Origin: a virus
IMG/VR virus record: IMGVR_UViG_3300022591_000041
Span: 1-31,979 of that record
DNA: 31,979 bases
Strand: one strand, 5' to 3'
The notes beneath the pieces were generated by a model that was not told where the DNA came from, made no database searches, and saw only the letters and a list, made by a program, of their open reading frames with translations. Shown piece after piece: positions 1 to 31,979 of the stretch (position 1 is the stretch's first letter; every line of letters starts with the position of its first letter). Both the position numbers and the translations under genes were made by a program.

Positions 1-482
1 CGCTTGGTTGGGGAAATCGAGTCATCCAAGCATTCAATGACTTCAATGCAGACATCGTTGTTGCTGAAAAGAATCAAGGCGGCGACATGGTTGAATCGAC
101 AATCCGAACAATCTCGCCGTCAGTCCCATACAAAGCAATCAGCGCATCCCGAGGCAAGTATCTTCGCGCTCAGCCAATTGCGGCCGCCTATGAGCAAGGC
201 AGAATCTTCCATGTCGGCCAATTCGACTTGCTTGAAGACCAAATGACTAACTGGTTGCCAGACTCTGGTTATTCGCCAGACAGACTTGATGCTCTGGTTC
301 ATGGCTTGAGTGAAGTCGGATTCACTTGGGGCGGCGCGACTGACAGATTCTTTGCGCATCTCATGGATGACTGCATCTACTGCGGGATACCGAACGCGAA
401 GGATGCTATCGTATGTCTGAGTTGTGGCAAGACATTGAACGCGCCGAGTGGTGTTAATCTTGGCCCGTTATCATTCAACTAG
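1..482 (+). CDS. Terminase large subunit, C-terminal part (5' truncated by window)
   Basis: The frame is open from the window edge, reading in from base 3, and 159 residues are visible. The protein is the motor and nuclease that packages phage DNA into the prohead. Support is the motif GWGNRVIQAF near the edge followed by AEKNQGGDMV, a combination common in terminase nuclease (RNase H-like) domains, and a late DRLDALVHGL segment that fits the last catalytic aspartate. The position directly before portal agrees. Odd: the protein ends in a zinc-ribbon-like C-x2-C-x10-C-x2-C tail (CIYCG...CLSCG). The start and ATPase domain lie outside the window. The portal gene starts 7 bases after the stop. 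The family is inferred from motifs and order; I am fairly sure. Confidence 0.87.
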   Translation, partial: LGWGNRVIQAFNDFNADIVVAEKNQGGDMVESTIRTISPSVPYKAISASRGKYLRAQPIAAAYEQGRIFHVGQFDLLEDQMTNWLPDSGYSPDRLDALVHGLSEVGFTWGGATDRFFAHLMDDCIYCGIPNAKDAIVCLSCGKTLNAPSGVNLGPLSFN

Positions 483-489
483 GAGTCAC

Positions 490-3228
490 ATGGGTATCTT
501 CAATCGCCGAGACAAGAACGCTGAGATGACAAAGGCAATTGAATCAGCACTTGAGAAGGCTGGGTTGATGGGAACGCCAATGCAAGGCGCTCAAGGCTAC
601 GTCAATACGACCGTCAATCAACCAGCAATGCAAGAGGCTCTGTTAATGACGCCCGGCTCAATTCAAGCGCCGCTCCCGCGTTCATCAGACATCTTCGGCT
701 CGCAACTTGGGCCAGCCGCGCCATTCTTGCCAACGCCACTTGACCCAGTCCTCGATGAAACTGGCCGCGCTCTGCCTCGCCGTTACGAATACCTGCCAGC
801 AACAAACCTTGACTTAACACTCAACACGCAATCATGGACTTTACTTCGCAAGATGTCTGAGCAATGCGACATTATTAATCGATGCATCATGATTCGCATT
901 AATCAAATCATCTCACAGGATTGGTCATTCACAATTAGCGATGATGCAGTTCGCGACATCATGGCATCAGAGAATGTTTCATCATCGAAGGCGGCCAAGA
1001 TTGGTCGTGAGCGTTTTGCCGACACCATCAACCGACTGCAAATGTTTTGGGATAATCCATATCCGCAAGGTGACAGAGGATTCGCTGAATGGATGACTGA
1101 GTTGCTCTGGCAACACTTCCCATTCGATGGCGTTGCAATCTACCCTCGCTATTCGCTAGGCGGTGACATTCTTGGTTTTGAAATTATTGACTCACCGACA
1201 ATCAAAGTGTTGCTCGACAATCGAGGCGACCAACCTCGGCCGCCATCGCCCGCGTTCCAGCAGATTCTTTGGGGATTCCCTCGCGGTGAGTATCAAGCAT
1301 CGCAACTCAATGATGGTGAGTTCTATTCAGGCGAAGGACTGACTGGCGAGTTCAAGACTGACCAACTTGCTTACTTCGTTCGCAATCGACGCACTTGGAG
1401 TCCTTACGGATACTCAACCGTTGAAGCCGCATTGCCCGCCGCAACTCTCTACTTAGAGCGTCAGCGTTGGATGAAGAGCGAATACATCGACGGCACGATG
1501 CCTCAGACATTTATGGAGACTGATGGCGATGAGATGGACCCACAGCGCTTAATGGCAATGGAGCGAATCCTCAATGACCAACTCGCCGGACAAGCGGCTC
1601 AGCGCCACCGAATCAAGATGTTGCCAAAGGGTATGCGGCCAACATTCGCGCCAAATCTCGATGAGCGATACAAAGAGACTTACGATGAGTTTCTTATCAA
1701 GCGCATTGGCTCAGTCTTTGGAGTCGCGCCTTCAGCACTTGGCGTCGTCCCTCGCTCTGGTTTAGGCGGCCGAGGACAGCAGGAAGGTGAGCAAGACCAA
1801 TCAGAGATTGAAGCGACACGCCCGCTTGAGCAATGGCTTACAGACATTATCAACTCACTATCGCGCCGATTCTTAGGCGTTGGGCGTGAGGTGACAATCA
1901 TCTTCTCTGGCGGCGAGAGCAAGGACAATTCAAGTCGCATTGCAAAAGCAAATCAGGATGCTCTGTTCTCAGGACAGAAAGTATTCAATGACGTTCGCGG
2001 CGAACTTGGCCTGCCACTCTTTGATATTCCTGAAGCCGATGAGCCATTCGTTATGACTCCCGGTGGCGGCATAGTATTCCTTCGCGGGCAATTAGCCGCG
2101 CAAGAGGCCGAAGCAATCAAACAATCCGAAGGAGTAACTAATGCCCTCAGTATGGTCGAGTCCGAAACACAGCAAGGCGCGCAAGGCGCGGAAGGCGAAA
2201 CGACCGAAAGTTCACCACGCGTCAGTTCGCAAGATATCGGTAAGAGCGAAGCGGCGCAAACTGAACTAAGGGCATTCAATCGATTCGTCAAGCGTCGCAT
2301 GTCTGATGAGACTTGGCGCGACTTTGAGTTTGAAGTCATTGCAAAGTCTGTCGCTGATGAATTGAATCATGCCGCCAAACTTGCCGTCTTTACTCAATCG
2401 CGCAATGGCCTCGCAAAGAAGTTTGAATCAATCCTCAGTAAGGAGATAACAGATATCCCTTTACCGAAGGGTCGGTTAGCCGACCTACCTTCAGAGGAAC
2501 TCCGCCAACGTATTGAGCGACACTACGAGCCTTTGATTCTTGAAGCATTGAAGAATCTCGTCACCAACATTGATGAGATTGCTGACTTGGCGCGCAATAA
2601 TAAATCGCCCGTCAGTCGCTCTGGCCGCGCATTGGCTCGTTCAGTCATTCGAATCAATTCAAAGGAACTTGCTCGCCTATTGCAGAGTCTGTATCGTGAC
2701 TCATATCTCGCAGGCTCTCACATCGCGCTTAATCAATTGCCTTCTGGCGCATCGCTTGGCGCAGGATTAGCCGAACTTGTTGCAGGAATCAATTGGGGGA
2801 CTTGGAAGCCCGGTGGCTCAAATCAAGCGGCCCAACTTCAAAATGGCGGCCTGAAACAAATGCTCGACAGCGCCAATATCACTCTCAAGGGCTTGACAAA
2901 TACAACCATCAATCAAATTGGGGACATCTTGGGCCAGCATCTTGCCAATGGCGGGACTCCAAAGGAGATGGCAAATGCAATTCAGTCCTATGTCAATGAC
3001 TCTTGGCGCGCGACTCTGATTGCTGAAACTGAAGCAGGCCGAGCAATGATTCAAGCAACAGTCGATACTTACATGACCAATGGCTACCAGCAATTCGAAT
3101 GGGTGGCATATGACGACGCCTGTGAAGAATGCGCCGCAATGCAAGATGCAAATCCGCATGATGTAACTGATGCGACCCCGCCACAACACCCGGGCTGTAG
3201 GTGTTATATTAACCCCGTACTCAATTAG
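490..3228 (+). CDS. Portal protein fused to a MuF-like C-terminal domain
   Basis: This 912-residue protein should form the portal ring through which DNA enters the head. The ATG at 490 is chosen over an upstream in-frame start at 448 because AGGAG lies at a proper distance and 448 is inside the terminase gene. The first ~560 residues look like a phage portal (for example MKSEYIDGTMPQTFM and a PLEQWLTDIINSLSRRFL helix). The last ~150 residues end in AETEAGRAMIQ, a CEECAAMQ segment and HPGCRC, the signature of Mu gpF-type head morphogenesis domains. Portal and MuF are often separate genes; here they form one chain. The long helical linker (residues ~570-750) is of unknown role. Next gene follows after 7 bases. 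Confidence 0.88.
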   Translation: MGIFNRRDKNAEMTKAIESALEKAGLMGTPMQGAQGYVNTTVNQPAMQEALLMTPGSIQAPLPRSSDIFGSQLGPAAPFLPTPLDPVLDETGRALPRRYEYLPATNLDLTLNTQSWTLLRKMSEQCDIINRCIMIRINQIISQDWSFTISDDAVRDIMASENVSSSKAAKIGRERFADTINRLQMFWDNPYPQGDRGFAEWMTELLWQHFPFDGVAIYPRYSLGGDILGFEIIDSPTIKVLLDNRGDQPRPPSPAFQQILWGFPRGEYQASQLNDGEFYSGEGLTGEFKTDQLAYFVRNRRTWSPYGYSTVEAALPAATLYLERQRWMKSEYIDGTMPQTFMETDGDEMDPQRLMAMERILNDQLAGQAAQRHRIKMLPKGMRPTFAPNLDERYKETYDEFLIKRIGSVFGVAPSALGVVPRSGLGGRGQQEGEQDQSEIEATRPLEQWLTDIINSLSRRFLGVGREVTIIFSGGESKDNSSRIAKANQDALFSGQKVFNDVRGELGLPLFDIPEADEPFVMTPGGGIVFLRGQLAAQEAEAIKQSEGVTNALSMVESETQQGAQGAEGETTESSPRVSSQDIGKSEAAQTELRAFNRFVKRRMSDETWRDFEFEVIAKSVADELNHAAKLAVFTQSRNGLAKKFESILSKEITDIPLPKGRLADLPSEELRQRIERHYEPLILEALKNLVTNIDEIADLARNNKSPVSRSGRALARSVIRINSKELARLLQSLYRDSYLAGSHIALNQLPSGASLGAGLAELVAGINWGTWKPGGSNQAAQLQNGGLKQMLDSANITLKGLTNTTINQIGDILGQHLANGGTPKEMANAIQSYVNDSWRATLIAETEAGRAMIQATVDTYMTNGYQQFEWVAYDDACEECAAMQDANPHDVTDATPPQHPGCRCYINPVLN

Positions 3229-3235
3229 GAGACTC

Positions 3236-4666
3236 ATGAAACTAACTCACGTTTACGCCGGCGACATTCAGAAGTCATATGACGAGAATGGCGACCTCAT
3301 CGTTACAGGCAAGGCGACTGGCCCTGACCTCGACCTTGATTACCAAATCTGTGACCCATCTTGGTTAGCGAAGGCAATGCCTCAATGGATGCAGATTGGC
3401 AATGTTCGCGAGATGCATCAGCCAATTGCGGCGGGCATCGGCTTATCGCTTGATACTGACGGAGAGAACTTCTACCTGAAGTCTCTTTGCGTCGACCCTT
3501 CGACTCGCAAAAAATTAGAGACTGGCGTTCTCAAAGGATACTCAATTGGTATCAAGAATGCTCGCGTCGTTAAAGATGCCGCCGCGCCAAATGGTCGAAT
3601 CATCTCAGGCGATATCGTTGAGATTAGTTATGTCGACCGTCCCGCAAATCCAACCGCAATGATTGAGATTGCAAATGCAGGCGGTTCGTCAGGTTTGCAA
3701 TTGACGACTAAGAGCGACGATGAGGAACTATTCGCGCCAATCCCCGCGCCCGTTATTGAAGAGCGTCAAGATGTCGACAATGCAATTGTTGATGCATCGA
3801 CTGAAGATGTTGCACTAGATGTTGAGGCGGCTGTCGCAGAGACTCTGGCCGTTGAGCCTGAAGTCGCTGTAGAGCCTACTGAAGAGCCCCTAGCGGCCGC
3901 AGATGCGCCTGTTGAGGCTGAGGTAGCCCCAATTGCTGAAGAGGCTCCTGTCGCTGATGCAATTGAAGCGCCTAAGTCTGCATTGAGCGAAGTCGGCACT
4001 CTTGTTGCTGAATTGAATAAGGCGGCTGGCGATGGAACTTGGTTGCACGACCCTGCAACGCTCAGTTCAATTCGCGACGGCATCATTGAAGTCTTGAAGG
4101 CCGAACTTGATGAGTTCGCCAAAGGCGAGGATGAGAATTGCGACGTTGCCTGCTTGACTGACATTCTGCATGACTTCCTCTATTGGTGGAAGAATGAAGC
4201 AGACGAAGGCGAAACAGTTTCGCCATTCTCTAGCGAGAACATGAACGATGAGGACTATGACACAATGGCATTCGTGAATCTAGGAATCAACCCAGACATC
4301 ATTAAGGCGGCGACTGCAGAGGATGACTCCGCGCGCGCCGAACTTCGTGACGAACTCGTAAAGGCTCTTGGCCTTGATGAAGTGACCGCTAAGTATGAGG
4401 CAACTCAAACTGCACAGGCTGAGACTATTGAGAGTCTTCGCGCAGAACTTGAGATTGTTAAGTCAATGGCGGCGCCCGGCGGCCCCGCAATCCGCCAAAC
4501 GCAGGTGCAGGCAGTAAAGTCGGCCGAGATTGAGACACGCGAACTCATGGCCATTCGTTACCGCGCGCTTGCAAATGAAGTAGAACAACCCGACCTGAAG
4601 ACCGGATACCTCGCCAAGGCTCTTGAAGCCGAGGAAGCAGTTCGCGCTCTTCGCACAAACATCTAA
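3236..4666 (+). CDS. Capsid maturation (prohead) serine protease with acidic scaffold-like C-terminus
   Basis: The start at 3236 follows AGGAGACTC. The first ~145 residues form a herpes/HK97-type prohead protease: His61 in REMHQP, Ser103 in KGYSIG and a VDRPANP segment near residue 133 are the expected landmarks. Residues ~175-260 are extremely rich in Ala, Glu, Val and Pro with almost no basic residues, and the C-terminal part (to 476) is helical with a predicted coiled coil near the end. A protease fused to a scaffold is a known arrangement, so I infer that this one chain both scaffolds the prohead and cleaves it. It lies between portal and capsid as expected. Confidence 0.85.
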   Translation: MKLTHVYAGDIQKSYDENGDLIVTGKATGPDLDLDYQICDPSWLAKAMPQWMQIGNVREMHQPIAAGIGLSLDTDGENFYLKSLCVDPSTRKKLETGVLKGYSIGIKNARVVKDAAAPNGRIISGDIVEISYVDRPANPTAMIEIANAGGSSGLQLTTKSDDEELFAPIPAPVIEERQDVDNAIVDASTEDVALDVEAAVAETLAVEPEVAVEPTEEPLAAADAPVEAEVAPIAEEAPVADAIEAPKSALSEVGTLVAELNKAAGDGTWLHDPATLSSIRDGIIEVLKAELDEFAKGEDENCDVACLTDILHDFLYWWKNEADEGETVSPFSSENMNDEDYDTMAFVNLGINPDIIKAATAEDDSARAELRDELVKALGLDEVTAKYEATQTAQAETIESLRAELEIVKSMAAPGGPAIRQTQVQAVKSAEIETRELMAIRYRALANEVEQPDLKTGYLAKALEAEEAVRALRTNI

Positions 4667-4680
4667 TAGAAAGTAATCAC

Positions 4681-6342
4681 ATGAATTACGCCGCACCATC
4701 CTTGAACGACATGTTCGCTGATGCCGCTACTCAGGGTGAGCGCATTGACCGCTTTGAAGCGTTCAAGTCAGCAATGACTACCGCACACCAGAAGGCCGCA
4801 CAGGGCGCTCGCGCCGGCGACCGTTTTGAGCGTTATCAGGGAATTGTCAAATCAACTACCCCTACTCCTGCCGCCGCAGTTGAGGCTCTTCGTGAGTCTG
4901 TAACTAAGGGTGTATCGCCTGAACAGCAGGCTGATGCATTGAAGGCGCTTGAGTCACTTCAGGACATCTCCAAAGACTGGACCTTGAGCAACCCACTTAG
5001 TGGCGTTCCAAACTTCGGTTCGAATCTTGGTCTTGTTCCTTATGACCTTAACCCTGCACTTGCAATGCTGGTTCCTCGTTCATTCATTTTGCGCAACTCA
5101 CTGCCCCGCACCTCTGGCGTTGGTCAGGCTCACGAGTTCCGTCGCATCTTGGGTGTATCGAACTCCGGTACTGGTGGAGTAGCAAATCTCTCAACGTTCT
5201 TCAGTTCGTCAAGCACGACTGACACCTTCGGAGCCGCTACCCTTCAGCGTCCAAAGAAGATTAGTTACGCCGCCGACCGTAAGGTTGTTACTGCTGTTGA
5301 GCAGGGTGTGTCGGACGAAGTCTTGATGCAGGCGCAGTTCGCGGGTCAAGGCTACGCCGACATCCGTCAATTGTCGCACACTGCATTGCTGTGGGCGCAC
5401 ATGATTGGTGAAGAAAAGAACCTCTTGTTCGCTCGCGGTTCTGGAACTGGTTACGTTGGCGCTCTTAGCGTTGCGTCAATCGGCACCATCACTCAGGCTG
5501 TTTCATCTGGTGGTTCAATCGCCGCTGGAACTTACACCGGCTACCTGACCTTCAAGACTGGCGCTGGCGAGACTGCCCGCATCGCGTTGCCTTCCGCAAC
5601 GACTGCATCGGCAAACCTCACCATCACTTACACCGTACCGACGCCACCTGCTGGCGCGATTGGCGTAAACATCTACTTGAACGATGGCACGAATGGCTGG
5701 TTTGCCACCTCACCTTTGACTAAGACAATCGTCTTGACCTCATTGGCCGCCTCATCGGCAACTGCCCCAACCGTCGACACCTCTGCTAACGCTTTGGCAT
5801 ATGACGGACTCGTAACTGTCTTGACTGACCCTAATCAGTCCGGATACGTAAACAACCTGAACGGTGTTCTGAATCAGTCAGAGCCGGGCGGAGACTTCCA
5901 GACTGCATTCGCTAGCCTGTACGCCTCAGTCATCGGTGACCCTGACTACGTTTTGACGACTGGTGCGATTCGTCGCTCACTCGCCAAGAGCATCCAACAG
6001 CAGGGCAACCCAACCGGCTACCGTCTCAACTACGAGACTGGTTCTGACGGACTTACCATCGGTTCAGTAGTTTCTGGTATCCAGAACGAAACGACTGGCA
6101 AGTTTGTTTCTGTCGACCCACACCCTTACATGCCTGCCGGCGTCGCTTTGATTGTTTCGAAGCAATTGCCATTCCCAGACTCAGGAGTTTCTGAGACTGT
6201 TGAAGTGCGCAACGTGACAGACATGCTCGTGGTGGAATGGCCGCAGATTCAGATGGCATACGACATCAGCAGTTACCAGTATGGAACTATGATTCACCGC
6301 GCACCAGCATGGTCCGGCGCAATCACTGGTATCGTCGCCTAG
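4681..6342 (+). CDS. Major capsid protein (HK97 fold) with inserted Ig-like domain
   Basis: At 553 residues this is the likely shell subunit, placed just after protease/scaffold and before the head-tail connector genes. The N-terminal ~100 residues are helical and Ala/Gln-rich, like a delta domain that could be cleaved. The core resumes with PYDLNPALAMLVPRSFIL, typical of capsid proteins. Between residues ~258 and 370 lies a beta-rich block (AGTYTGYLTFKTGAGETA, then PPAGAIGVNIYLND), which resembles Ig/FN3-type surface domains; it would decorate the capsid. Codon use is unlike the neighbouring genes: glutamine is 22 CAG to 4 CAA, whereas CAA dominates in the portal gene, as expected for a very highly expressed gene. 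A strong hairpin follows the stop. Confidence 0.87.
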   Translation: MNYAAPSLNDMFADAATQGERIDRFEAFKSAMTTAHQKAAQGARAGDRFERYQGIVKSTTPTPAAAVEALRESVTKGVSPEQQADALKALESLQDISKDWTLSNPLSGVPNFGSNLGLVPYDLNPALAMLVPRSFILRNSLPRTSGVGQAHEFRRILGVSNSGTGGVANLSTFFSSSSTTDTFGAATLQRPKKISYAADRKVVTAVEQGVSDEVLMQAQFAGQGYADIRQLSHTALLWAHMIGEEKNLLFARGSGTGYVGALSVASIGTITQAVSSGGSIAAGTYTGYLTFKTGAGETARIALPSATTASANLTITYTVPTPPAGAIGVNIYLNDGTNGWFATSPLTKTIVLTSLAASSATAPTVDTSANALAYDGLVTVLTDPNQSGYVNNLNGVLNQSEPGGDFQTAFASLYASVIGDPDYVLTTGAIRRSLAKSIQQQGNPTGYRLNYETGSDGLTIGSVVSGIQNETTGKFVSVDPHPYMPAGVALIVSKQLPFPDSGVSETVEVRNVTDMLVVEWPQIQMAYDISSYQYGTMIHRAPAWSGAITGIVA

Positions 6343-6360
6343 TCACCCATTCGTCGGTTC

Positions 6361-6394: not shown

Positions 6395-6418
6395 GGCCGG
6401 CACTTGGAAGGGAGTAGT

Positions 6419-8223: not shown

Positions 8224-8230
8224 GAGCATC

Positions 8231-10412: not shown

Positions 10413-10908
10413 TGTCAAAGTCGGATTCCATATGACGGGAGTCGATGAAGCCGTTACATCAATGCGCGCAAAGATGGCCGCCGCAAATCTTGCCGCCCGC
10501 AAAATCGTTGCAGATGGTGGTGAGATGATTGCGGAAGAGGCGCGCGCTCAATTCATTCCTCGCGTCAAAGGCGGTCGGCATAAAGTCACCGTCTATCACA
10601 AAGATGGGACAACCTCAGAGGCATGGGCGTATGGCGCGCCTGTTGATAGAGTCAATCATCGGCCGACTCAACGAACAGGGAATGTTCAACGCTCTATTCA
10701 AGTTTTTACAAGCCGAGGCCCGCGACAAGGCATGTGGATATCTGAAACTGGTCCGACTGCAAAGTATGGGCGTCGAGTCGAACTCGGAATGCATTATGGT
10801 GAAGGCGATGACACTTACCCTTACATGCAACCGGGATTCACTCGCGCAAAACCAAAGGTGCAGGCCCTCGCAACTAAAGAATGGCGACTAGCGTTAAGTT
10901 ATGGCTGA
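10399..10908 (+). CDS. HK97 gp10-like neck/tail protein
   Basis: The 169-residue product starts at the ATG at 10399, preceded by GGAG. It resembles the HK97 gp10-like family: a helical start AKMAAANLAARKIVADGG, then AEEARAQFIPRVKGG, a central RTGNVQRSIQV and a late AKYGRRVELGMHYGEGD, with TYPYMQPGFT near the end. These proteins usually sit in the connector region before the tail tube. Here the gene lies between the tail chaperone and the tape measure, an unusual place. It overlaps both neighbours. Confidence 0.8.
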   Translation: MPTNNVKVGFHMTGVDEAVTSMRAKMAAANLAARKIVADGGEMIAEEARAQFIPRVKGGRHKVTVYHKDGTTSEAWAYGAPVDRVNHRPTQRTGNVQRSIQVFTSRGPRQGMWISETGPTAKYGRRVELGMHYGEGDDTYPYMQPGFTRAKPKVQALATKEWRLALSYG

Positions 10909-12709
10909 ACTACTTCCACCAATCATTGCGACGCTCATGGCCGAAGGCGAACAGTTCTTTGGCTTATTCGAACGCGCCAACAAAACAATGGAAGGGACTG
11001 CGGCCAAGGCCGATACTCTCGGCGGCAAGTTTGCATCTTTAGGCTCAAAAGTATCGACCGTCGCTCTGACTGGATTCGCGGGCGCTCTGATTCTTGGGAC
11101 TAAGTATGCGCTTGAATACTCGGACCAACTTAAGGCTCTCCAAACGCAGGCGGGATGGACTAAAGAGCAAGTCGATAAGATGTCGCCTTCAATTCTTGAC
11201 CTATCAAACAAGATGGGCGTCGCGACAGACATCCTGATTCCCGCATTGGTATCAGCCTCGAAGGCTGGGTACACTCAAGCGCAGGCAATGAATCTTGTCG
11301 CTCAAGCGACGAACTTGGCGGCCACGACAACGACCAATGCAAAAATCTCAGCCAGCGACCTTGCAACGACAACCCAGACTCTTATCACTTTGCAGGCATT
11401 GCATATTAAAGGGACTCAAAATCTGACGACAACAAGCATTGCGCTATGGGCGGCGCAGGCTCATGGCACAATGACTATGACGGACTTTGCTGAAGCATTG
11501 AATGGCAAAGTCACCGCCGCAATGCAGGCGTTCGGCCTCGGACTTGATTCAGTTGGTTCAACGATTGCATTCTTTGCCGATGCTGGTCTCAAGGGCCAAA
11601 AGGCAGGCATGATGATTAGTCAGATGCTTGGCAAGATGGAGACTCCATCACAGACTGTTGATAAGCATTTACGCGCAATTGGATTAACTCAACAACGCGT
11701 CGCTGAAGATGTCAAAAAACCGGGCGGATTCTTATCGGTAATGCAAATGATTCACACGCGATTCATTGCGGCTGGTTACTCAGCAAAAGACTACTCAAAC
11801 TTCTTACTGCAACTGTTCGGTGGTGGTGCGCGAACGATGGCTGGTCCATTGCTCTTTGCAAACAACATGGACAAAGTTAATAAGATTATGGACCAGTCGA
11901 AGAATGCTGGTAAGAGTTATGGCGATGCGCTAGCCGCCTACCTGAATGAGCCTTCAACGAAGATGGCCAAACTCGGCGAACAGGTTAAGCATTTACTGCA
12001 AGGCATCGGGACATTTACTATTCCAATCGTTATGGATGCGACTAAGTTCCTTTCATCATTCATTGACAAACTTAAGACGAGTCCCGCATTGAAGATGGCT
12101 CTCGAAGAAAGTATTGCTGGTGTCATTGTTCTCGCGATGGCTATGAAGATTAAGAAAATATTCGGTTCAGTCAAGGACTTGTTCGGCAAAGGGACCGAAG
12201 GCGTCAAGAGCGCGCAGACGACAACCATTATTGAATTACTAAGAAGTATTGACATCAATACTGCAAAGACGGCAGGCTTAAGTCCCCTTGGCGGCGGACC
12301 AAAGACGCCGACCGTACCGCCCGGCAATGAGATACCGAAGCCGCCACCGACAGAAAATGGTGGCGGAGCAAGCGCGGCGGCAATAGCGGCAGTCGTCATT
12401 GCGGGACTTGCCTCTTTCGTCGTTCCCGCATCAATTTTGACTGCTGGTATGACGAGCCTTGATACAGCAAAAGGCCAAGCCGCATTGAAGAAGGCTTATG
12501 GTGCGCAAGGTGCGGCGCGGTTCAATGAAGCCCTTGGCGGCATTGCAAATGAGCATGGTTACGTCATTGACCAAAATGGCACTGTTGGCGGCGGCTCAGG
12601 CAGTCGCGTCGTATCCAATGAATTGATGCGCATTGAAGCCGCCATCCTGAAGGCCAATGCATTACATAAACCAGTCCCATCATTGAAAGTGATTCTCAGT
12701 GCCAGATGA
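10901..12709 (+). CDS. Tape measure protein
   Basis: At 602 residues this is the long helical protein that sets tail length and is injected with DNA. Evidence: long stretches of Ala/Lys/Leu helix with GALILGTKYALEYSDQLKAL near the start, repeated ALVSASKAGYTQAQAMNLV-type motifs of the phage tail tape measure family, an ALNGKVTAAMQAFGL segment, and hydrophobic spans at residues ~405-420 (AGVIVLAMAMKI) and ~495-520 (AAAIAAVVIAGLASFVVP). The position after the chaperones agrees. At about 1.5 angstrom per residue it predicts a short tail of roughly 90 nm. The gene starts inside the previous stop (ATGGCTGA). Confidence 0.88.
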   Translation: MAELLPPIIATLMAEGEQFFGLFERANKTMEGTAAKADTLGGKFASLGSKVSTVALTGFAGALILGTKYALEYSDQLKALQTQAGWTKEQVDKMSPSILDLSNKMGVATDILIPALVSASKAGYTQAQAMNLVAQATNLAATTTTNAKISASDLATTTQTLITLQALHIKGTQNLTTTSIALWAAQAHGTMTMTDFAEALNGKVTAAMQAFGLGLDSVGSTIAFFADAGLKGQKAGMMISQMLGKMETPSQTVDKHLRAIGLTQQRVAEDVKKPGGFLSVMQMIHTRFIAAGYSAKDYSNFLLQLFGGGARTMAGPLLFANNMDKVNKIMDQSKNAGKSYGDALAAYLNEPSTKMAKLGEQVKHLLQGIGTFTIPIVMDATKFLSSFIDKLKTSPALKMALEESIAGVIVLAMAMKIKKIFGSVKDLFGKGTEGVKSAQTTTIIELLRSIDINTAKTAGLSPLGGGPKTPTVPPGNEIPKPPPTENGGGASAAAIAAVVIAGLASFVVPASILTAGMTSLDTAKGQAALKKAYGAQGAARFNEALGGIANEHGYVIDQNGTVGGGSGSRVVSNELMRIEAAILKANALHKPVPSLKVILSAR

Positions 12710-22741: not shown

Positions 22742-22800
22742 GGCCTATCTCATCAGTTGCAGGCGGCCATTCACTGCAAGACGCCTCACGGCGTTTCGAT
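22742..22800 (-). ncRNA. Type II hammerhead ribozyme (copy B)
   Basis: The minus strand reads AUC, GAAA, stem III ACGCC/GGCGU with a GUGA tetraloop, C17 (GUC cleavage site, at 22780), stem I UUGCAG/CUGCAA (6 perfect bp) around an 11-base loop, CUGAUGA (22750-22756), GAU. Stem I differs in sequence from copy A yet still pairs, and loop I holds GGCC that can pair with GGCC at 22742-22745. Predicted cut lies between 22780 and 22779. The 5' end of the ribozyme overlaps the last base of the glutamine amidotransferase stop codon. Stem II has 3 bp. Confidence 0.87.
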
Positions 22801-23642
22801 TATCCGCGCCAGCCTTGCCAATCACCCTCGCGCTCAGAATTGAGATACTCCGCCCAGATTGCATCATCATCATCAATATCGGCAAAGAGCGAAGGCGCGC
22901 TATATGAAGGCAACGCATAGCCCGCGCCGCTAGCCGCAAACTCGCTCCAATCATTGATTGCGCCTTGCTCGACTTTGAGATACGTCCCCTCTCCGACTTC
23001 AGCGCGCCACGTCAAGGCAAGATTCGACTTTGCCGCCGCGCGATTCAACATATTCATCTGAGAGCAGAACACGAACTGCCCAGTCTTTGATTGAGCAATT
23101 GCCAGAGGCGATGACTTGACTCGCGCTAAGCGCAACGTCTCAGGCGACTCCAAATCAATCCAAGCAAGCGCCGCGCCGCCAATCAAGCGAGGCAGAGCCT
23201 CACAGATTGAATCAGCATCAGAGCCAACCGACTCGATAAGAGCGAAGGCCGCCTCTGAATCAACCTGCCCGATGCGCTTGACGCCGACTTCATTGAAGAG
23301 CGCATCATCATTTGAGATATGCCCATTATGAACGCCGATGATACGAGGCCGAATGATGGGATGATTATTCGCATCAATCGAAGGAGAGCCTTGCGTTGCA
23401 TAGCGAGTATGCAAGATGCAGATGCGAACATCAGGCGACATCAGCGACTTCAACTCTTTCACGAATCCCCATGCTGAGCCTGCGCGCTTGTAATAATACA
23501 CCTCGCCATCTGACGGGTCGACCCACGATGCGCCAGTAGCATCCTTGCCGCGCGCGACAATCTCCAACAACAACTCTGATGCCAAGACTCGCGCATCAAT
23601 CTTTGCTCCGCCTGTTAAGCAGAATCCTGCGATACCACACAT
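22800..23642 (-). CDS. Class II glutamine amidotransferase
   Basis: The 280-residue enzyme releases ammonia from glutamine. It opens with MCGIAGF, so Cys2 becomes the N-terminal nucleophile after Met removal. Other landmarks are RGKDATG (31-37), HTRYATQG (78-85), NNHP (92-95), GVHNGHISN (103-111) and VDSEAAFALI. It lacks any synthetase domain, so ammonia is presumably passed to a partner, most likely the amidoligase encoded just upstream in the same operon. The start follows AAGGAAGGAATC. The last ~40 residues are acidic (DIDDDDAIWAEYLN). Pairing of these two families in phage and bacterial gene clusters has been described, so the link is a reasoned inference. Confidence 0.88.
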   Translation of the reverse strand: MCGIAGFCLTGGAKIDARVLASELLLEIVARGKDATGASWVDPSDGEVYYYKRAGSAWGFVKELKSLMSPDVRICILHTRYATQGSPSIDANNHPIIRPRIIGVHNGHISNDDALFNEVGVKRIGQVDSEAAFALIESVGSDADSICEALPRLIGGAALAWIDLESPETLRLARVKSSPLAIAQSKTGQFVFCSQMNMLNRAAAKSNLALTWRAEVGEGTYLKVEQGAINDWSEFAASGAGYALPSYSAPSLFADIDDDDAIWAEYLNSEREGDWQGWRG

Positions 23643-23671
23643 ATTGATTCCTTCCTTACTTTCTCGATGAC

Positions 23672-24772
23672 CTAGTTCAATTCCAAAACGCGCTCTGAGA
23701 AAAAGTCAACCAACTCAGATGGTGCGCCTGACAATTCGACAATCTTGGCAAGCGTATTCTCAACCTTGCGCTGACGGTAGCCAGCGGCTGAGCCATCGAA
23801 TGCGCCAGCGCGGCCTTCAATCGTGAATCCCTCTGAATTGCGCGCAATGGTAGGCACGAACTGCAACTTGTCTTCCTTTGCCAACTTCATGCAAGCCATG
23901 AGCAACAAGCCCCACTTCTGCATCTTCTCGCGGTTGAGCGTTCCTTGGTGCTGACGGAACTCAAGCGTCGTGTGGCGATTCATTGACTGCGTGTTGATGG
24001 TGCGGTAGCGCCAGTTGTCGTTATTAGGAACGACGCGACGCTCAAGCATCGGCATCTCTTCATCCAATTGGCGCTGAGTCCAACCCGACAAGAGCGAATT
24101 GATGCGACGGCTAGGCGAAGTCAGCGCGTCAAAGAATCCCTGATTGGCGACATAGAACTTAACCATGCGAACGAGCGCGGCGGCGGGCATGTCATCAGTG
24201 CCGAGATGAATGTGAGTGCCGCATGAGAGGCGAATCTGAGCGCCTGCATCCTTGAGCGCCTTCATCGCAATCTCAACTTCATCCCAACCCTCATCGCCAT
24301 ACAAGACTGGCGAGACTGCTTCCATGCCACATGATGCATCGCGAACGACCTTCCACCAAGTCGTGCGACGGTGCGTGTATCCTTCATCGCGAACTTGCAA
24401 GCCTGCATTCTCAAGCGCCGCCAACATCGCGTCGGCTGAAAGATTCTCAGTCTCAAGTTCGACGCCGAATGAGCGACGAGTCCAATCATCAAGCGTCGTC
24501 AGATTCTCAACGAACGCGCTAGACGATGCGCCAGTCGCGCCATTGCGGATTGATGCCATCGATGATGCGAACGCCCATATCGCTGAGTAATCGTTGGCGG
24601 CAACTCCGAGTGAGCGCGCGCGCGACAGAGCCGCACGAGCCGACTGGCCATGCGCCCAACCGCATACGCGCGCCGCTTGGTCGTAGGTGTAACCATTCTG
24701 AATCATCCACAAGCCGTGTGCCATGCGGCGCTCTGATTGATTACTGATTCGTGTTCCGTTCAGGTAAGGCAT
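23672..24772 (-). CDS. Amidoligase (glutamine synthetase-like COOH-NH2 ligase)
   Basis: Taken from ATG 24772 (after GAAAGTGGGAATCAA) the product has 366 residues; longer in-frame starts lie in the leader and -10 region. Residues ~10-60 look like a helix-turn-helix (GYTYDQAARVCGWAHGQSAR). The catalytic part follows: FGVELETE (Glu105/Glu107), GMEAVSPVL (Glu151), CGTHIHLG (His187/His189) and TTLEFRQHQGTL (Glu271/Arg273), which are the signature motifs of the putative amidoligase family. These enzymes are predicted to form amide or peptide bonds on unusual substrates using ATP. The promoter at 24841-24870 lies just upstream. An N-terminal HTH fused to an amidoligase is unusual. Confidence 0.87.
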   Translation of the reverse strand: MPYLNGTRISNQSERRMAHGLWMIQNGYTYDQAARVCGWAHGQSARAALSRARSLGVAANDYSAIWAFASSMASIRNGATGASSSAFVENLTTLDDWTRRSFGVELETENLSADAMLAALENAGLQVRDEGYTHRRTTWWKVVRDASCGMEAVSPVLYGDEGWDEVEIAMKALKDAGAQIRLSCGTHIHLGTDDMPAAALVRMVKFYVANQGFFDALTSPSRRINSLLSGWTQRQLDEEMPMLERRVVPNNDNWRYRTINTQSMNRHTTLEFRQHQGTLNREKMQKWGLLLMACMKLAKEDKLQFVPTIARNSEGFTIEGRAGAFDGSAAGYRQRKVENTLAKIVELSGAPSELVDFFSERVLELN

Positions 24773-24800
24773 TTGATTCCCACTTTCATTCATCGGCGCT

Positions 24801-24832
24801 AGCGACTTGCTCGCGCCTTGAGCGACTTGCTC
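24801..24832. repeat. Tandem 12-bp repeat in the amidoligase leader
   Basis: AGCGACTTGCTC occurs at 24801-24812 and 24821-24832, a spacing of 20 bases. Both copies lie between the -10 box and the start codon, so they are in the transcribed leader or overlap a repressor site. Role unknown. Confidence 0.75.
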
Positions 24833-24840
24833 ATGCATCA

Positions 24841-24870
24841 ATGATAGGCACGATTCGAGACAAATTGCAA
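24841..24870 (-). promoter_or_regulatory. Minus-strand promoter of the amidoligase operon
   Basis: On the minus strand TTGCAA (24870-24865) and TATCAT (24846-24841) are separated by 18 bases. A near-identical element lies at 27985-28014, including the upstream bases GTTTCAGATTGTTGCAA and the CGTGCCTA before the -10 box, which supports a real phage promoter. Confidence 0.7.
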
Positions 24871-24987: not shown

Positions 24988-24994
24988 TGTCTGC

Positions 24995-26212: not shown

Positions 26213-26234
26213 TCATTCTTCCTTTCACATGATG

Positions 26235-26268
26235 AATCCCGCCATCCTAAACCAGCGATGGCGGGATT
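26235..26268 (-). terminator. Perfect 12-bp hairpin between two minus-strand genes
   Basis: AATCCCGCCATC (26235-26246) pairs perfectly with GATGGCGGGATT (26257-26268) around a 10-base loop. It lies 14 bases past the stop of the gene at 26282. There is no strong T-run after it, so it may be a partial terminator or mRNA end stabiliser. Confidence 0.8.
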
Positions 26269-26281
26269 CGCAACTTCTTGA

Positions 26282-27127: not shown

Positions 27128-27255
27128 TAGTTGATTCCTTTCTTCAATCGCAAACCAGCCAGCACCGCATTGATGCAGTTGGTGCAGTAGTCGCCTGCAG
27201 TCTTATTGGCGCAAGTCGATGTCTTGCACTTGTGTTGCTTGTAGCCTTTGCGCAT
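27127..27255 (-). CDS. Small Cys4 zinc-finger-like protein, 42 aa
   Basis: The start at 27255 overlaps the stop of the previous gene (TAATG). The sequence is MRKGYKQHKCKTSTCANKTA, then GDYCTNCINAVLAGLRLKKG: Cys10, Cys15, Cys24 and Cys27 form C-x4-C-x8-C-x2-C. It ends in another TAATG overlap with the next gene. Likely metal-binding; function unknown. Confidence 0.7.
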   Translation of the reverse strand: MRKGYKQHKCKTSTCANKTAGDYCTNCINAVLAGLRLKKGIN

Positions 27256-27932: not shown

Positions 27933-27984
27933 GATTCCCACTTTCATTCATCGCGCTCGCGCTTTGCGAATCTCCGATGCATGA

Positions 27985-28014
27985 ATATTAGGCACGACTT
28001 GGGAATAATTGCAA
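27985..28014 (-). promoter_or_regulatory. Minus-strand promoter, second copy
   Basis: TTGCAA (28014-28009) and TAATAT (27990-27985) on the minus strand are 18 bases apart, and the bases around them match the element at 24841-24870. A start codon follows 53 bases downstream of the -10 box. Confidence 0.7.
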
Positions 28015-28071
28015 CAATCTGAAACACGCTGGAATCAGTGGGCTTCAGACACCGGATTCTGAGCATCTGAA

Positions 28072-29109
28072 TCATTCAGCATTTTTGAGCCTCAGCACTC
28101 TGAATCCTGCTCGAGGCTTCATGAACTGCGCCACCAACTCAGGATGCGCTTCCTTAAATGCTTTTGTATCGAATGTCTCAGAGTCTTTGGTTGCCTTGAA
28201 TGTGTAAAGAGTGTTGCCTTCATAAGTCACTGCCTCTGCATCTGCGACAATCAACTCAAGTTGCGCGCGAATCTTCTTCAGTCGCGTATCTGCCTCATCG
28301 GCGGCCGCCTTTGCCTTTACATATTCTTCAACCAACTCAACCTCGAACTCGCCGACTTCAATTTGGCGTTCAGGAATTACTTCAGGGTAGAACTCCTTGA
28401 TGGCATCGAAGTCAGATTGAAGTCCAATCGGCTCTGGCTTGATATCGTTCTCAACATCAAACCAGAACTTTGATTCTGCATCATTCAATCGGTTCAACGT
28501 CGCCTCGTCATAGTTGCGAACGCGAGTCTGAAGTCCTTGGCCGCCAATCAACGCCGCAAAGATGACAGTCCGTAATCCTGTTACAGCGCAGTAATGAGCG
28601 CCTTGCCAAAAATATGAAGTTGGAACGCCATCGTTGTCCCATTCGCGAGATGCGCGCCCGACTAGCCCATTCGTCTTGACTTCAAGAATCGCGACTGGAT
28701 TAAAGTCCTTGACATTCTTCGGGTCAATATCAGTGACCTGACCAATCGGATAATCGCCAAAGTCATCATCGCTTGACATGATGAAGAAGTCGACATTCGC
28801 AAGTTGAAATGGCCTCTCAATCGATTGCAAGATGACTGGGTATGCGACAACGGCGGCGCGCTCGCGCTCTGCGAATGCTTCCGCGACTGAACGCTCTAAA
28901 CGATTGCCCCATTCTGTCGCTTCATTGCCTTGAAACTCCGATTCAATCGCTCCTGTCTTCTCGCCCCATAATGCCAATGGCGTATTCCATTTTGATAATC
29001 CGAGGACAACTGCGGCATCTGAGCCGCCAATCCCTTCACGGCGACTCTCAAGCCATTGCTCATGGCTCAAGTCATTCGTGAATGCTTTCACTTCATATTG
29101 CTTTGTCAT
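28072..29109 (-). CDS. YqaJ-type recombinase/exonuclease
   Basis: The 345-residue protein is started at ATG 29109 behind GAGAGAGAAAC; an ATG at 29124 is possible. The PD-(D/E)xK nuclease core of the YqaJ family is visible: RREGIGGSDAAVVLGLSKW (Asp31), EWGNRLE (Glu66/Glu72), ANVDFF (Asp107) and AILEVKT (Glu143/Lys145). The last ~90 residues form a charged helical segment. Such enzymes resect double-stranded ends for phage recombination, usually with a ssDNA annealing partner, which I do not see here. It is followed by the promoter at 27985-28014. Confidence 0.85.
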   Translation of the reverse strand: MTKQYEVKAFTNDLSHEQWLESRREGIGGSDAAVVLGLSKWNTPLALWGEKTGAIESEFQGNEATEWGNRLERSVAEAFAERERAAVVAYPVILQSIERPFQLANVDFFIMSSDDDFGDYPIGQVTDIDPKNVKDFNPVAILEVKTNGLVGRASREWDNDGVPTSYFWQGAHYCAVTGLRTVIFAALIGGQGLQTRVRNYDEATLNRLNDAESKFWFDVENDIKPEPIGLQSDFDAIKEFYPEVIPERQIEVGEFEVELVEEYVKAKAAADEADTRLKKIRAQLELIVADAEAVTYEGNTLYTFKATKDSETFDTKAFKEAHPELVAQFMKPRAGFRVLRLKNAE

Positions 29110-29151
29110 GTTTCTCTCTCTCATTGCTTGCCGACTTGGCTTTACTTCTTG

Positions 29152-29502
29152 CTACCACGCATGACATTCGCCATTCCGGTCTGGTGTTGGCAAACCATCT
29201 TGAATGCGCATTGCTACGACTACTTGTTGCTCTGGTGTTGCTTGCCATGCATGAGGCGCGAACTCTTCGCCGCCATAATAAATCCAATTAATAGGCATGA
29301 TGCCAAGCCCACCTTCATAGCGTGACCCTTGATGCTTCCAATTGCCATGAGTCTCGCACCAAGCAACGCTCGCCCATTCATTCATCTTTGATGCTGAAAC
29401 AAGCGTTGTTGTCGTTGTCGGAATCGACTTGACTTCATGATGCTTCATGACAGTTGCATGATGGATATGGGGCGCGATGATGAGCGAACTAAGAACGCTC
29501 AT
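29152..29502 (-). CDS. Rpf-like lysozyme (transglycosylase-like) with N-terminal anchor
   Basis: The ATG at 29502 is preceded by TAAGGG; a TTG at 29529 is also possible. The first ~20 residues are moderately hydrophobic (MSVLSSLIIAPHIHHATV), a likely signal or anchor, followed by a Thr-rich linker. The domain WASVAWCETHGNWKHQGS holds Glu50, the catalytic acid of resuscitation-promoting factors, with GGLGIMPINWIYYGG and QATPEQQVVVAMRI. Cys49 and Cys113 may form the disulfide known in Rpf proteins. It would cleave peptidoglycan glycan strands, and such domains are typical of actinobacteria and their phages. It is located far from the main lysis genes, so it may serve at another stage. Confidence 0.8.
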   Translation of the reverse strand: MSVLSSLIIAPHIHHATVMKHHEVKSIPTTTTTLVSASKMNEWASVAWCETHGNWKHQGSRYEGGLGIMPINWIYYGGEEFAPHAWQATPEQQVVVAMRIQDGLPTPDRNGECHAW

Positions 29503-29515
29503 CACCGCGATGCCC

Positions 29516-29629
29516 TTACCGATTACCAAGTGTCAGTCCTAGAGCGATGAGGAATAGAGTGAAGACTGCAATGCCCACATATACCCTGATGTCATCATCC
29601 TTTGGTGCCAACTTATCCTTGTCATTCAT
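29516..29629 (-). CDS. Small single-span membrane protein, 37 aa
   Basis: The ORF starts after TTAAGGAGCAAAA, a very good ribosome binding site. The first 15 residues (MNDKDKLAPKDDDIR) are charged, followed by a hydrophobic helix at residues ~16-34 (VYVGIAVFTLFLIALGLTLG). It ends 13 bases before the Rpf-like gene start, which suggests a joint function, for example a holin-like or anchor partner. Confidence 0.65.
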   Translation of the reverse strand: MNDKDKLAPKDDDIRVYVGIAVFTLFLIALGLTLGNR

Positions 29630-29638
29630 TTTTGCTCC

Positions 29639-29953
29639 TTAATGTCTCAAGAACTTCTGAACGGACTCCCAATCGCGAGGCCGCCAGACATGAACTTGAA
29701 TCGTTTGATTCGCATCAGCAATCCTCTCAAGCAATGCGAGGACAACTTTCTGTTGGGGAGAGAGGCGGCCGACATCTGTCTTTAATTCAACAAACATCAA
29801 TCGCGAATCTCTCTCCCTCATCAGCACCAAATCAGGAAACCCTGCCAAGGTGGCGAATCGACTATCCGGTATTGAATAGACCAACCAATCATAGAGGCGC
29901 GCCAAGTCCAGTATCTGTTTCTTGAACGATGCTTCAACTGTTTTACGCGCCAT
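29639..29953 (-). CDS. VRR-NUC nuclease
   Basis: The 104-residue product starts at ATG 29953, inside the end of the HNH gene (ATGGCGCGTAA). It has the compact PD-(D/E)xK layout of VRR-NUC proteins: Glu7 in the first helix, GFPDLVL (Asp41), FVELKTDVG (Glu56, Lys58) and LSPQQ (Gln67). Such small nucleases act on DNA junctions or ends in phage recombination. The gene sits between the HNH nuclease and the small membrane protein gene. Confidence 0.83.
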   Translation of the reverse strand: MARKTVEASFKKQILDLARLYDWLVYSIPDSRFATLAGFPDLVLMRERDSRLMFVELKTDVGRLSPQQKVVLALLERIADANQTIQVHVWRPRDWESVQKFLRH

Positions 29954-30284
29954 ATGTTCTCGCACGAATAATCGCCGCGTCAGTCATATCTTCATCAGTC
30001 GCCCAAGAATGAACGACGAAACCATGCTCAAGAGCGAAGGCTGGATTGACAGTTATGAATGAATGACATGCCCGACAAAGTGCCAAGACGTTAGTCTCAT
30101 CAAGAATGTCGCCGCCTCGGGCGCGCGTCTTAATCTCATGGACATCAGTCGCTTGATTCTGACAGCCTGCAAGTCGCGCTTCGCACCATTCGCGCTCGCC
30201 GATAATGCGCCTGACGAACTGCCGCCTATCGCCCGCAATTGCGGCGCGTTTTTTGCTGACGGGATTGACTCGACTTCTACGCAT
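29943..30284 (-). CDS. HNH endonuclease
   Basis: The 113-residue product begins at ATG 30284, which overlaps the stop of the previous gene by 8 bases. It carries an HNH core: Cys34 and Cys41 in WCEARLAGCQNQ, then VHEIKTRARGG (His49), ETNVLALCRACHSF (Asn65, Cys70, Cys73, His74). The Cys pairs would bind zinc. Small HNH proteins often assist terminase, but this one lies in the DNA-metabolism cluster next to VRR-NUC and could act in replication or recombination. Confidence 0.83.
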   Translation of the reverse strand: MRRSRVNPVSKKRAAIAGDRRQFVRRIIGEREWCEARLAGCQNQATDVHEIKTRARGGDILDETNVLALCRACHSFITVNPAFALEHGFVVHSWATDEDMTDAAIIRARTYGA

Positions 30285-30621
30285 TGATTCTGTTAGGGAC
30301 TTTGACTCGGGGCCATCTGTCATGCTCTGAAAAGAACTCAAGCATCTGCAATCGGCATTCATTGCAGACATGAGGATTGTCTGACCAATAACAAACGATT
30401 CGCTTCATCGACCACAGTTGACATGAGTCGCAAACACCCGGCAACCATTCAGCAGTTCTAATGAAGTTGTCACTGATGCGCTCAATGATGCTGTTCGGGC
30501 CTTTGGGCCAAAGAGTCAGAGTCGGTGTGACTGATGAGATGTTCAAATTGACGGACAGGTTCAAGTCGAATAAGTCGCTCAATAAATTACTGAAGTCGTT
30601 TTGTTCTTCGATGAAGTCCAC
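30277..30621 (-). CDS. Hypothetical zinc-finger protein, 114 aa
   Basis: The only start after an in-frame stop is GTG at 30621; the binding site is poor. Residues 64-89 hold two Cys pairs (VCDSC, then VCNEC with an extra Cys77), a probable zinc site. The N-terminal half is acidic (MDFIEEQNDFSNLLSDLFDL). The gene begins 9 bases past the winged-helix gene stop and ends in an 8-base overlap with the HNH gene. Function unknown. Confidence 0.65.
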   Translation of the reverse strand: MDFIEEQNDFSNLLSDLFDLNLSVNLNISSVTPTLTLWPKGPNSIIERISDNFIRTAEWLPGVCDSCQLWSMKRIVCYWSDNPHVCNECRLQMLEFFSEHDRWPRVKVPNRINA

Positions 30622-30630
30622 ATACCGACA

Positions 30631-31122
30631 TTACCGCATCTTGTCTGTGTTGTTCTTGGCCTTTAATGCCTCGCGAATCTGCGACACGCGCGCTGGTATA
30701 TCAATCTGTTCAGTTAAATCAATCGCATGGTTCTTTATAAAAGGATTATCTAATGGTTTAGGGTAACTTGCTAACTCTCTAGAGCGTTCGCTATTTACGC
30801 TCAACGCAGTCGCAACTTGCGCTCTCTTAACTTGACCTCTCGCAGTGATATCTCTAGCCTCAGTCTCAACAGCGAACTTATAAATGGCGGGTTTGCGGTT
30901 AGTCGCGTCATACATCTTGACTAAGACACCCATCGCCTCAAGCCTTCGCATTGAACGAGAGACTGTCAGTTTGCTCAGTCCAGTCATGCGCGCGACGGTC
31001 GATTGAGCGGGCCTCGCTTGAGTCCCATCATCATGAGCAAAGTCTGCCAACGCTAATGCAACCAACTTCTCAGTCGCGGGCAAATCTAACTTCCATACGA
31101 GTTTGCTAATCCAGATGCTCAC
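30631..31122 (-). CDS. Winged-helix/HTH protein, probable replication or regulatory role
   Basis: The start is GTG at 31122 (after AGAGGCG), overlapping the previous stop. The first ~80 residues (KLDLPATEKLVALALADFAH, then STVARMTGLSKLTVSRSMRR and LEAMGVL) form a winged helix of the HTH_36/replisome-organiser type. The C-terminal part is charged and probably disordered, ending in a helix rich in Lys/Arg. In phages such proteins load the host replication machinery or act as regulators; the position beside nucleases favours replication. Not certain. Confidence 0.7.
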   Translation of the reverse strand: MSIWISKLVWKLDLPATEKLVALALADFAHDDGTQARPAQSTVARMTGLSKLTVSRSMRRLEAMGVLVKMYDATNRKPAIYKFAVETEARDITARGQVKRAQVATALSVNSERSRELASYPKPLDNPFIKNHAIDLTEQIDIPARVSQIREALKAKNNTDKMR

Positions 31123-31823
31123 TTAGTTCGCCTCTTGATTAACTCATCGCGCTCTCCCTGCAATGCAGAGAAAGTTGCGACGCCTTGCTTGCGTTTGAGA
31201 TGCGGAATGTTATTGACAACGATGCCAACTTTATTGTTCGACATTGTTGCGGCCAATAAATCATCTTCCTCTTGGTCGGTGTAGCCCGCATCAATCAATG
31301 ATTCGATAGTCGGGAAGACATCAGCATGACGGTCATGATTCTTATCAACCAACTTGTCTTGCTTGCCACCCATTGAATAGATAATGACGAAGTTGTTCGG
31401 CAGGCTCTTCGACTTAACCATGCCAACCTCTTTGGTGTAAGCGTAAAAAAATACATCCGGCGTCGCCTCTGCGATTCGTATCCAAGCATCAAGGTAAGGC
31501 TCAATGAAGAAGTCGCCTGAATCATGAATGCGAACTTTCTTGCCGTCGCGATATCGCTTTGCCTTCAACTCTTCAATCATCGAGGCTTCCCAGCCATTAA
31601 TATCATCGAGAATCATCTTCAACTTCGCGACATGCGCCGCCTTCACATTGCTGAATCGATAAGTCCCGACTCGCGCATAACAAAGGTTCGCGCATATGCC
31701 GGCATTAGGACAAGTCAAGATATTGCCATGCCCTTCGACGCGCGCATTCAATGCAGGCAACGACCAAGTAAAGATGCCCGACTTCGCGAGTTCGCGGTTG
31801 CCATTAGTCAGCAGATACTTCAC
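31119..31823 (-). CDS. GP88-like protein
   Basis: The 234-residue product is like the GP88 family named after mycobacteriophage L5 gene product 88: TCPNAGICANLCYARVGTYR, RIHDSGDFFIEPYLDAW and DVFFYAYTKEVGMVKS. The conserved Cys cluster C-x5-C-x3-C-Y-A and the R-I-H-D-S-G-D-F motif are the family marks. Its biochemical role is unknown. The GTG at 31823 overlaps the upstream stop (GTGA) behind AGGTGG; a TTG at 31838 would add five residues. It is widespread in actinophages, which supports the host inference. Confidence 0.78.
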   Translation of the reverse strand: MKYLLTNGNRELAKSGIFTWSLPALNARVEGHGNILTCPNAGICANLCYARVGTYRFSNVKAAHVAKLKMILDDINGWEASMIEELKAKRYRDGKKVRIHDSGDFFIEPYLDAWIRIAEATPDVFFYAYTKEVGMVKSKSLPNNFVIIYSMGGKQDKLVDKNHDRHADVFPTIESLIDAGYTDQEEDDLLAATMSNNKVGIVVNNIPHLKRKQGVATFSALQGERDELIKRRTK

Positions 31824-31979
31824 TTGCCACCTAGCCAATTGATATCTCTCAATGGCTCAACGATGTCTAGATAGTCCAGCACCTTGATTACGTCGCAGGG
31901 CCACTCCACGTAATACTCGCCACAACCGCACCTATCGCAGTGTGGCGATTCTTCCCCTGTCTTATTCCACCATTCGTTG
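31820..31979 (-). CDS. Hypothetical Cys-rich protein (start outside window)
   Basis: The frame is open from the window edge to the TGA at 31820-31822; 52 residues are visible. The segment SPHCDRCGCGEYYVEWPC suggests a zinc ribbon, followed by an acidic helix (VIKVLDYLDIVEPLRDI). It overlaps the GP88-like start by four bases. No family recognised. Confidence 0.6.
   Translation of the reverse strand, partial: NEWWNKTGEESPHCDRCGCGEYYVEWPCDVIKVLDYLDIVEPLRDINWLGGK

What the first reader, a model, noticed from the sequence alone, without database searches (positions are those of the whole stretch)
1..31979. GATC appears to be completely absent from the window
A line-by-line reading by eye, including line junctions, found no GATC, whereas about 125 would be expected by chance in 32 kb. 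Because the site is a palindrome this covers both strands. GATT, GATG and GATA are all very common, so this is not caused by base composition. Known: phages lose sites of host restriction enzymes. Inference: the usual hosts carry GATC-targeting restriction or GATC is otherwise harmful.
Basis: seen in the sequence. Interest (0 to 1): 0.72.

Follow-up and report, generated by a model that had tools for sequence, protein, structure and literature searches.

The report
Phage genome purged of restriction sites
This stretch of a phage genome contains no GATC at all, nor any of at least four other short palindromes that bacterial restriction enzymes cut, and its relatives each lack their own set, so these phages seem to dodge their hosts' DNA-cutting defences by erasing the target words from their genomes.

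Summary
GATC occurs 0 times in 31,979 bases, against 105-197 expected under several null models, including one that keeps every protein and the codon usage. It is the most depleted tetramer, but it is not alone. AGCT, GCWGC, CCWGG and RAATTY are also wholly absent, and GTAC, GGYRCC, CCRYGG and GRGCYC are strongly depleted. The signal is specific to palindromes: 4 of 48 short palindromes are missing against 0 of 360 matched non-palindromes. The window is part of a tailed phage of a family whose relatives carry WhiB genes or sit as prophages in Actinomycetota. Relatives purge different sets of palindromes. Close pairs differ by tens of sites in the same genes (GATC 87 vs 0, AGCT 42 vs 0), mostly through synonymous changes. 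The GATC-free state changed at least five times on the capsid tree. Phages with unrelated structural genes lack the same four sites. The best explanation is loss of sites under cleavage by several host Type II restriction-modification systems. This is a known strategy, here unusually complete and combinatorial. The actual host and its enzymes were not identified, but a complete DpnII-type GATC cassette exists in Actinomycetota.

The parts
1..31979 (.). Whole window: phage record with no GATC, AGCT, GCWGC, CCWGG or RAATTY on either strand; AGRYCT also 0
87..482 (+). C-terminal end of the large terminase (weak Terminase_6C hit, just over cut-off); suggests the record is cut inside the terminase gene, so the genome is incomplete
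493..3228 (+). Portal protein fused to a MuF-like minor head domain
4681..6342 (+). Major capsid protein (553 aa), used to find the relatives and build the tree
10901..12709 (+). Tail tape-measure protein
28072..29109 (-). YqaJ/RecE-like recombination exonuclease
29639..29953 (-). VRR-NUC nuclease; homologues in both GATC-free and GATC-rich relatives
29943..30323 (-). HNH endonuclease; homologues in both GATC-free and GATC-rich relatives
31119..31838 (-). GP88-family protein shared with otherwise unrelated phages that lack the same four sites
13..17 (+). One of only three GAAAT in the window (others at 1180 and 28806, all on the + strand; no ATTTC on the + strand): possible purged non-palindromic target

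Best explanation
[quoted passage not shown] Any genome with such a site could be cut on entry, so variants with point mutations in the sites, mostly synonymous, were favoured until none was left. No methyltransferase was found among the window proteins searched, so the phage appears to rely on absence of sites rather than on modification. When a lineage moves to hosts with another restriction repertoire, old words drift back and new ones are purged, which gives each relative its own set. Shown: absence, codon-independent and palindrome-specific depletion, lineage-specific sets, differences between relatives that are mostly synonymous, Actinomycetota affiliation of the family. Inferred: the cognate enzymes in the actual host, and the direction of the changes.
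For: Zero counts against a null that keeps proteins and codon usage: GATC 0/108, AGCT 0/84, GCWGC 0/76, CCWGG 0/44, RAATTY 0/37.5. Palindromes absent 4/48 against 0/360 matched non-palindromes; lambda none, T7 one. Lineage-specific sets in about 60 relatives. The GATC-free state needs at least 5 gains or losses on well-supported branches of the capsid tree. Pairs in aligned DNA: GATC 87 vs 0 (L047/L067, 72% identity), AGCT 42 vs 0 and CGCG 1 vs 32 (L062/L064, 80%), AGCT 15 vs 0 and GCWGC 7 vs 0 (L042/L041, 91%). The differences are mostly synonymous: 49/86, 32/41, 29/32, 11/14. L106, L107 and L109, which share GP88 but none of the window structural proteins tested, lack GATC, AGCT, GCWGC and CCWGG. 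WhiB in many relatives and prophages in Acrocarpospora, Sphaerisporangium and Amycolatopsis. DpnII-type GATC endonuclease in 6 of 396 Actinomycetota genomes, one with REase, D12 methyltransferase and a second methyltransferase, whose chromosome sample has GATC 158/477; EcoRII-type in 3 of 396. A survey reports that phages avoid almost only orthodox Type II sites (PMC6286503).
Against: The host was not identified, so no cognate enzyme could be linked to this phage. A lake survey found no methylated motif in its freshwater Actinobacteria bins, most at low coverage (PMC6329791). GAAAT (3 against 63-104 expected) and GGAGG (1 against about 43) are also depleted although not palindromic, which orthodox Type II systems with palindromic sites do not explain. 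The record is incomplete and the missing part could encode a methyltransferase.
Confidence: 0.85

Rival explanations
1. GATC is avoided because of Dam-directed mismatch repair (MutH cutting or repair at GATC), as proposed for phiX174, not because of restriction.
For: phiX174 has no GATC and adding GATC sites lowers its mutation rate (PMC5014478); T7 has 6 against 149 expected.
Against: It cannot explain the simultaneous loss of AGCT, GCWGC, CCWGG and RAATTY, nor relatives that keep GATC and lose CGCG or TGCA. Actinobacteria commonly lack MutS/MutL and use NucS (abstracts of PMC12892979 and PMC12649562).
Confidence: 0.03
2. The phage encodes its own site-specific nuclease that degrades host DNA, and it lacks the sites to protect itself.
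For: The window encodes HNH and VRR-NUC nucleases.
Against: Homologues of both occur in relatives rich in GATC (L137: 166/61) as well as in GATC-free ones (L134: 0/61); five or more independent specificities would need as many nucleases.
Confidence: 0.03
3. Compositional or codon bias, inherited from the host or from mutation, removes these words without restriction.
For: Some other k-mers such as GTGC, GAAA and AAAT are also low.
Against: Codon-preserving shuffles still give 84-110 expected for GATC and AGCT; no matched non-palindrome is absent; actinobacterial chromosome samples of 38-61% GC have GATC near expectation in most cases.
Confidence: 0.02
4. Compatible with the main reading: restriction acts through mixed types, orthodox Type II systems for the palindromes plus a Type III, IIS or BREX-like system for GAAAT and perhaps GGAGG.
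For: GAAAT 2/69 and GGAGG 1/43 in coding sequence, both strands depleted; the three GAAAT left all lie in one orientation, as Type III escape would allow. GAAAT depletion is not general in the family.
Against: Three sites are too few to judge orientation; Type III avoidance is rare and Type I and IIG avoidance unseen in a survey (PMC6286503); GGAGG could be partly Shine-Dalgarno avoidance.
Confidence: 0.35

Closest known systems
Elimination of orthodox Type II restriction sites in non-temperate dsDNA phages (Rusinov et al. 2018, PMC6286503)
   Same: Complete loss of short palindromic sites; GATC among the words consistently avoided when hosts encode the enzymes; the survey reports complete or almost complete elimination in about a tenth of viral genomes.
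   Different: Here at least five specificities are gone at once, the set differs between close relatives, and the host enzymes are unknown.
GATC and CCWGG scarcity in phage T7
   Same: T7 has GATC 6/149 and CCWGG 2/69.
   Different: T7 nearly loses two words; this phage loses five completely.
GATC-free phiX174 (PMC5014478)
   Same: No GATC where about 20 are expected.
   Different: Small ssDNA phage of a Dam/MutHLS host; a mismatch-repair cause was proposed there.
DpnII-type GATC restriction-modification cassette in Actinomycetota (G089, L165:9646-13484)
   Same: Has the specificity needed to select against GATC; genome sample 51.8% GC, near the window's 50.4%.
   Different: Not shown to be the host; no phage-host link found.

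Membership tests
Type II restriction-site avoidance by a phage | Short palindromic sites strongly under-represented or absent beyond composition and codon effects | tested here: met
Type II restriction-site avoidance by a phage | Effect specific to palindromes, not to matched non-palindromes | tested here: met
   4/48 against 0/360; exceptions GAAAT and GGAGG are strongly depleted, not absent
Type II restriction-site avoidance by a phage | Host encodes a restriction enzyme for the avoided word | not testable with these tools
   Host not identified; DpnII-type and EcoRII-type enzymes exist in sampled Actinomycetota
Type II restriction-site avoidance by a phage | Virus is a non-temperate dsDNA phage | tested here: inconclusive
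   Tailed-phage genes; no integrase among the proteins searched, but not all ORFs were searched and the record is incomplete
Type II restriction-site avoidance by a phage | No other anti-restriction strategy such as its own methyltransferase | tested here: inconclusive
   None among window proteins searched and none of PF01555, PF00145, PF05869 in L001's record; genome incomplete
Dam/MutHLS-related GATC avoidance | Depletion confined to GATC | tested here: not met
   AGCT, GCWGC, CCWGG, RAATTY also absent

The most novel reading that the evidence does not exclude
These actinophages track a shared pool of restriction specificities across host populations by rapidly erasing and regaining whole sets of palindromes. 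The set then acts as a readable record of the host's restriction repertoire, with unrelated phages converging on the same set, and may include a purged non-palindromic word (GAAAT) that reflects an undescribed kind of system.
Probability: 0.4. Interest if true: 0.65.

Novelty: new member of a known kind. Interest (0 to 1): 0.48.

Why it matters
Avoidance of restriction sites is textbook, but a family in which single lineages lack up to eleven short palindromes, in combinations that switch between close relatives, is a natural record of how fast restriction shapes phage genomes. The absent words could predict which restriction systems uncultured hosts carry and so help to pair phages with hosts.

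Tried and rejected
Codon or composition bias as the cause: rejected by codon-preserving shuffles. Phage-encoded methyltransferase as the switch between GATC-free and GATC-rich relatives: phage Dam family PF05869 in none of 50 records; N6/N4 and C5 methyltransferases in 7 and 4 records, none of them GATC-free, but their specificity is unknown and records are partial. PF02086 (D12) was not searched in the relatives. Phage-own nuclease: homologues not associated with the GATC state. Gapped Type I-like motifs: only GACN6GTC (0/11, coding sequence) stands out among symmetric ones, weak after many tests. Host by homology: one scan of genome contigs and a search of 396 Actinomycetota genomes gave only three actinobacterial prophages at 44% identity. 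IMG sample numbers are not named in the paper library, so the habitat is not established. One search timed out and one search stopped on an error part-way; both were rerun.

Full report
Observation. An exact count gives no GATC in 31,979 bases. The maximal-order Markov expectation is 158 (z = -17.0, the lowest of all tetramers) and the first-order expectation 197. A stricter control permutes synonymous codons over 36 genes (28.8 kb), so that every protein and the overall codon usage are kept. It gives 105 expected, with a minimum of 83 in 300 shuffles. The finding is therefore real and not a by-product of composition. L001, a nearly identical record, has none either, and the far end of its contig has 0 against 18 expected.

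GATC is one word of several. A greedy scan of palindromic IUPAC patterns against the codon-shuffle null picks GATC 0/108, AGCT 0/84, GCWGC 0/76, CCWGG 0/44 and RAATTY 0/37.5. Next come GTAC 12/62, GGYRCC 3/30, AGRYCT 0/22, CCRYGG 1/21, GRGCYC 1/22 and GACN6GTC 0/11. The non-palindromic neighbours GCWGG and CCWGC are present: SCWGS occurs 121 times while GCWGC and CCWGG are zero. Of 48 short palindromes with at least 10 expected, four are missing; of 360 matched non-palindromes none is. All five words are known recognition sequences of Type II enzymes: DpnII/Sau3AI, AluI, TseI/ApeKI, EcoRII and ApoI (general knowledge).

What the window is. It is an IMG/VR virus record that begins at the end of a terminase gene (weak Terminase_6C hit). 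It continues with a portal-MuF fusion, protease, capsid, tail genes with a tape measure, an endolysin-like protein, and a mostly leftward block with an amidoligase, a glutamine amidotransferase, a RecE-like exonuclease, HNH and VRR-NUC nucleases, a replication initiator and GP88. No methyltransferase or known defence protein was found among the proteins searched. The genome is incomplete. Capsid relatives occur as prophages in Acrocarpospora, Sphaerisporangium and Amycolatopsis, and WhiB, a protein typical of Actinomycetota, is encoded by many relatives though not by this record. The family therefore infects Actinomycetota; the host of this phage is inferred from that.

Relatives. Among about 60 environmental relatives long enough to judge, most lack several palindromes, but different ones. 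L049-L051, L055, L056, L058-L064, L067 and L086 have no GATC. L012, L013 and L016 lack CGCG, CASTG, CGWCG and CCSGG almost or entirely. L068 and L070 lack TGCA, TATA, ATAT, CGCG, TCGA, GCNGC and GANTC. The three prophages and the relatives L002 and L033 lack none of these words. On a capsid tree the GATC-free state requires at least five gains or losses over well-supported branches. L058, far from the window on the tree, lacks all five of the window's words.

Close pairs are the most telling. In homologous DNA, L047 has 87 GATC where L067 has none. L062 has 42 AGCT where L064 has none, and L064 has 32 CGCG where L062 has one. L042 has 15 AGCT and 7 GCWGC where L041, 91% identical, has none. 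Where the word differs the protein is mostly unchanged: 49 of 86, 32 of 41, 29 of 32 and 11 of 14 cases are synonymous only. GATC is commonly matched by GATT, CATC or AATC. Direction of change cannot be polarised from pairs alone.

Convergence. Phages reached through the GP88 gene, which show no match to the eight structural window proteins tested, lack the same four words: L106, L107 and L109 have 0 GATC, AGCT, GCWGC and CCWGG, with 63, 54, 26 and 19 expected in L106. Others of this group lack up to nine palindromes. Shared host restriction repertoires explain this better than descent.

Mechanism. The best reading is repeated selection by orthodox Type II restriction. A survey of phage genomes found that avoidance concerns almost only such systems, that it is strongest in non-temperate phages, and that complete or near-complete elimination is seen in about a tenth of viral genomes (PMC6286503). 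The actual host enzymes are not shown. As a plausibility check, 6 of 396 sampled Actinomycetota genomes carry a DpnII-family endonuclease. One of them, G089 (2.2 Mb, 51.8% GC in the sample), has a full cassette of endonuclease, D12 methyltransferase and a second methyltransferase, and GATC is reduced threefold in its chromosome sample (158/477). EcoRII-type endonucleases occur in 3 of 396. Other sampled actinobacterial chromosomes have GATC near expectation in most cases.

Rivals. Mismatch-repair avoidance, proposed for phiX174 (PMC5014478), does not account for the other words and fits badly with Actinobacteria, which commonly use NucS instead of MutS/MutL (abstracts of PMC12892979 and PMC12649562). 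A phage-encoded nuclease is not supported, because the HNH and VRR-NUC homologues occur in GATC-rich relatives too. Composition is excluded by the codon control. One loose end is the near-absence of the non-palindromic words GAAAT (3 in the window, all in one orientation) and GGAGG (1), which may point to another kind of system.

Verdict. The finding is real and, in kind, explained by a known strategy. The number of words erased together, the fast switching between relatives and the convergence of unrelated phages make it a strong example and a possible tool to read the restriction repertoire of uncultured hosts.

Noticed in passing
window 13, 1180, 28806 (GAAAT) and 17425 (CCTCC): Two non-palindromic words are almost absent: GAAAT/ATTTC 3 (63-104 expected), GGAGG/CCTCC 1 (25-43 expected). 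GAAAT is not generally depleted in relatives.
   Followed up: partly
L070 and L133 (record G043, 37.7 kb): This relative lacks about eleven short palindromes and also almost all GAGC (1/124) and CGAG (5/130), non-palindromic tetramers, and it encodes a C5-methyltransferase.
   Followed up: partly
L041 vs L042 (records G018, G019): Phages 91% identical over 19.5 kb differ in AGCT and GCWGC (0 vs 15 and 0 vs 7); one encodes an N6/N4 methyltransferase, the other a piece of a C5-methyltransferase. A natural pair for testing a recent switch.
   Followed up: partly
L045 and L137 (records G022, G024): GATC is strongly over-represented (229/83 in L045, 166/61 in L137) in relatives that lack other palindromes, more than mere relaxation would give.
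   Followed up: no
window 22800-24841: Glutamine amidotransferase and amidoligase genes side by side, suggesting peptide or cell-wall amide chemistry by the phage.
   Followed up: no
window, coding sequence: GCGC (336/200) and GANTC (228/128) are over-represented against the codon-shuffle null.
   Followed up: no
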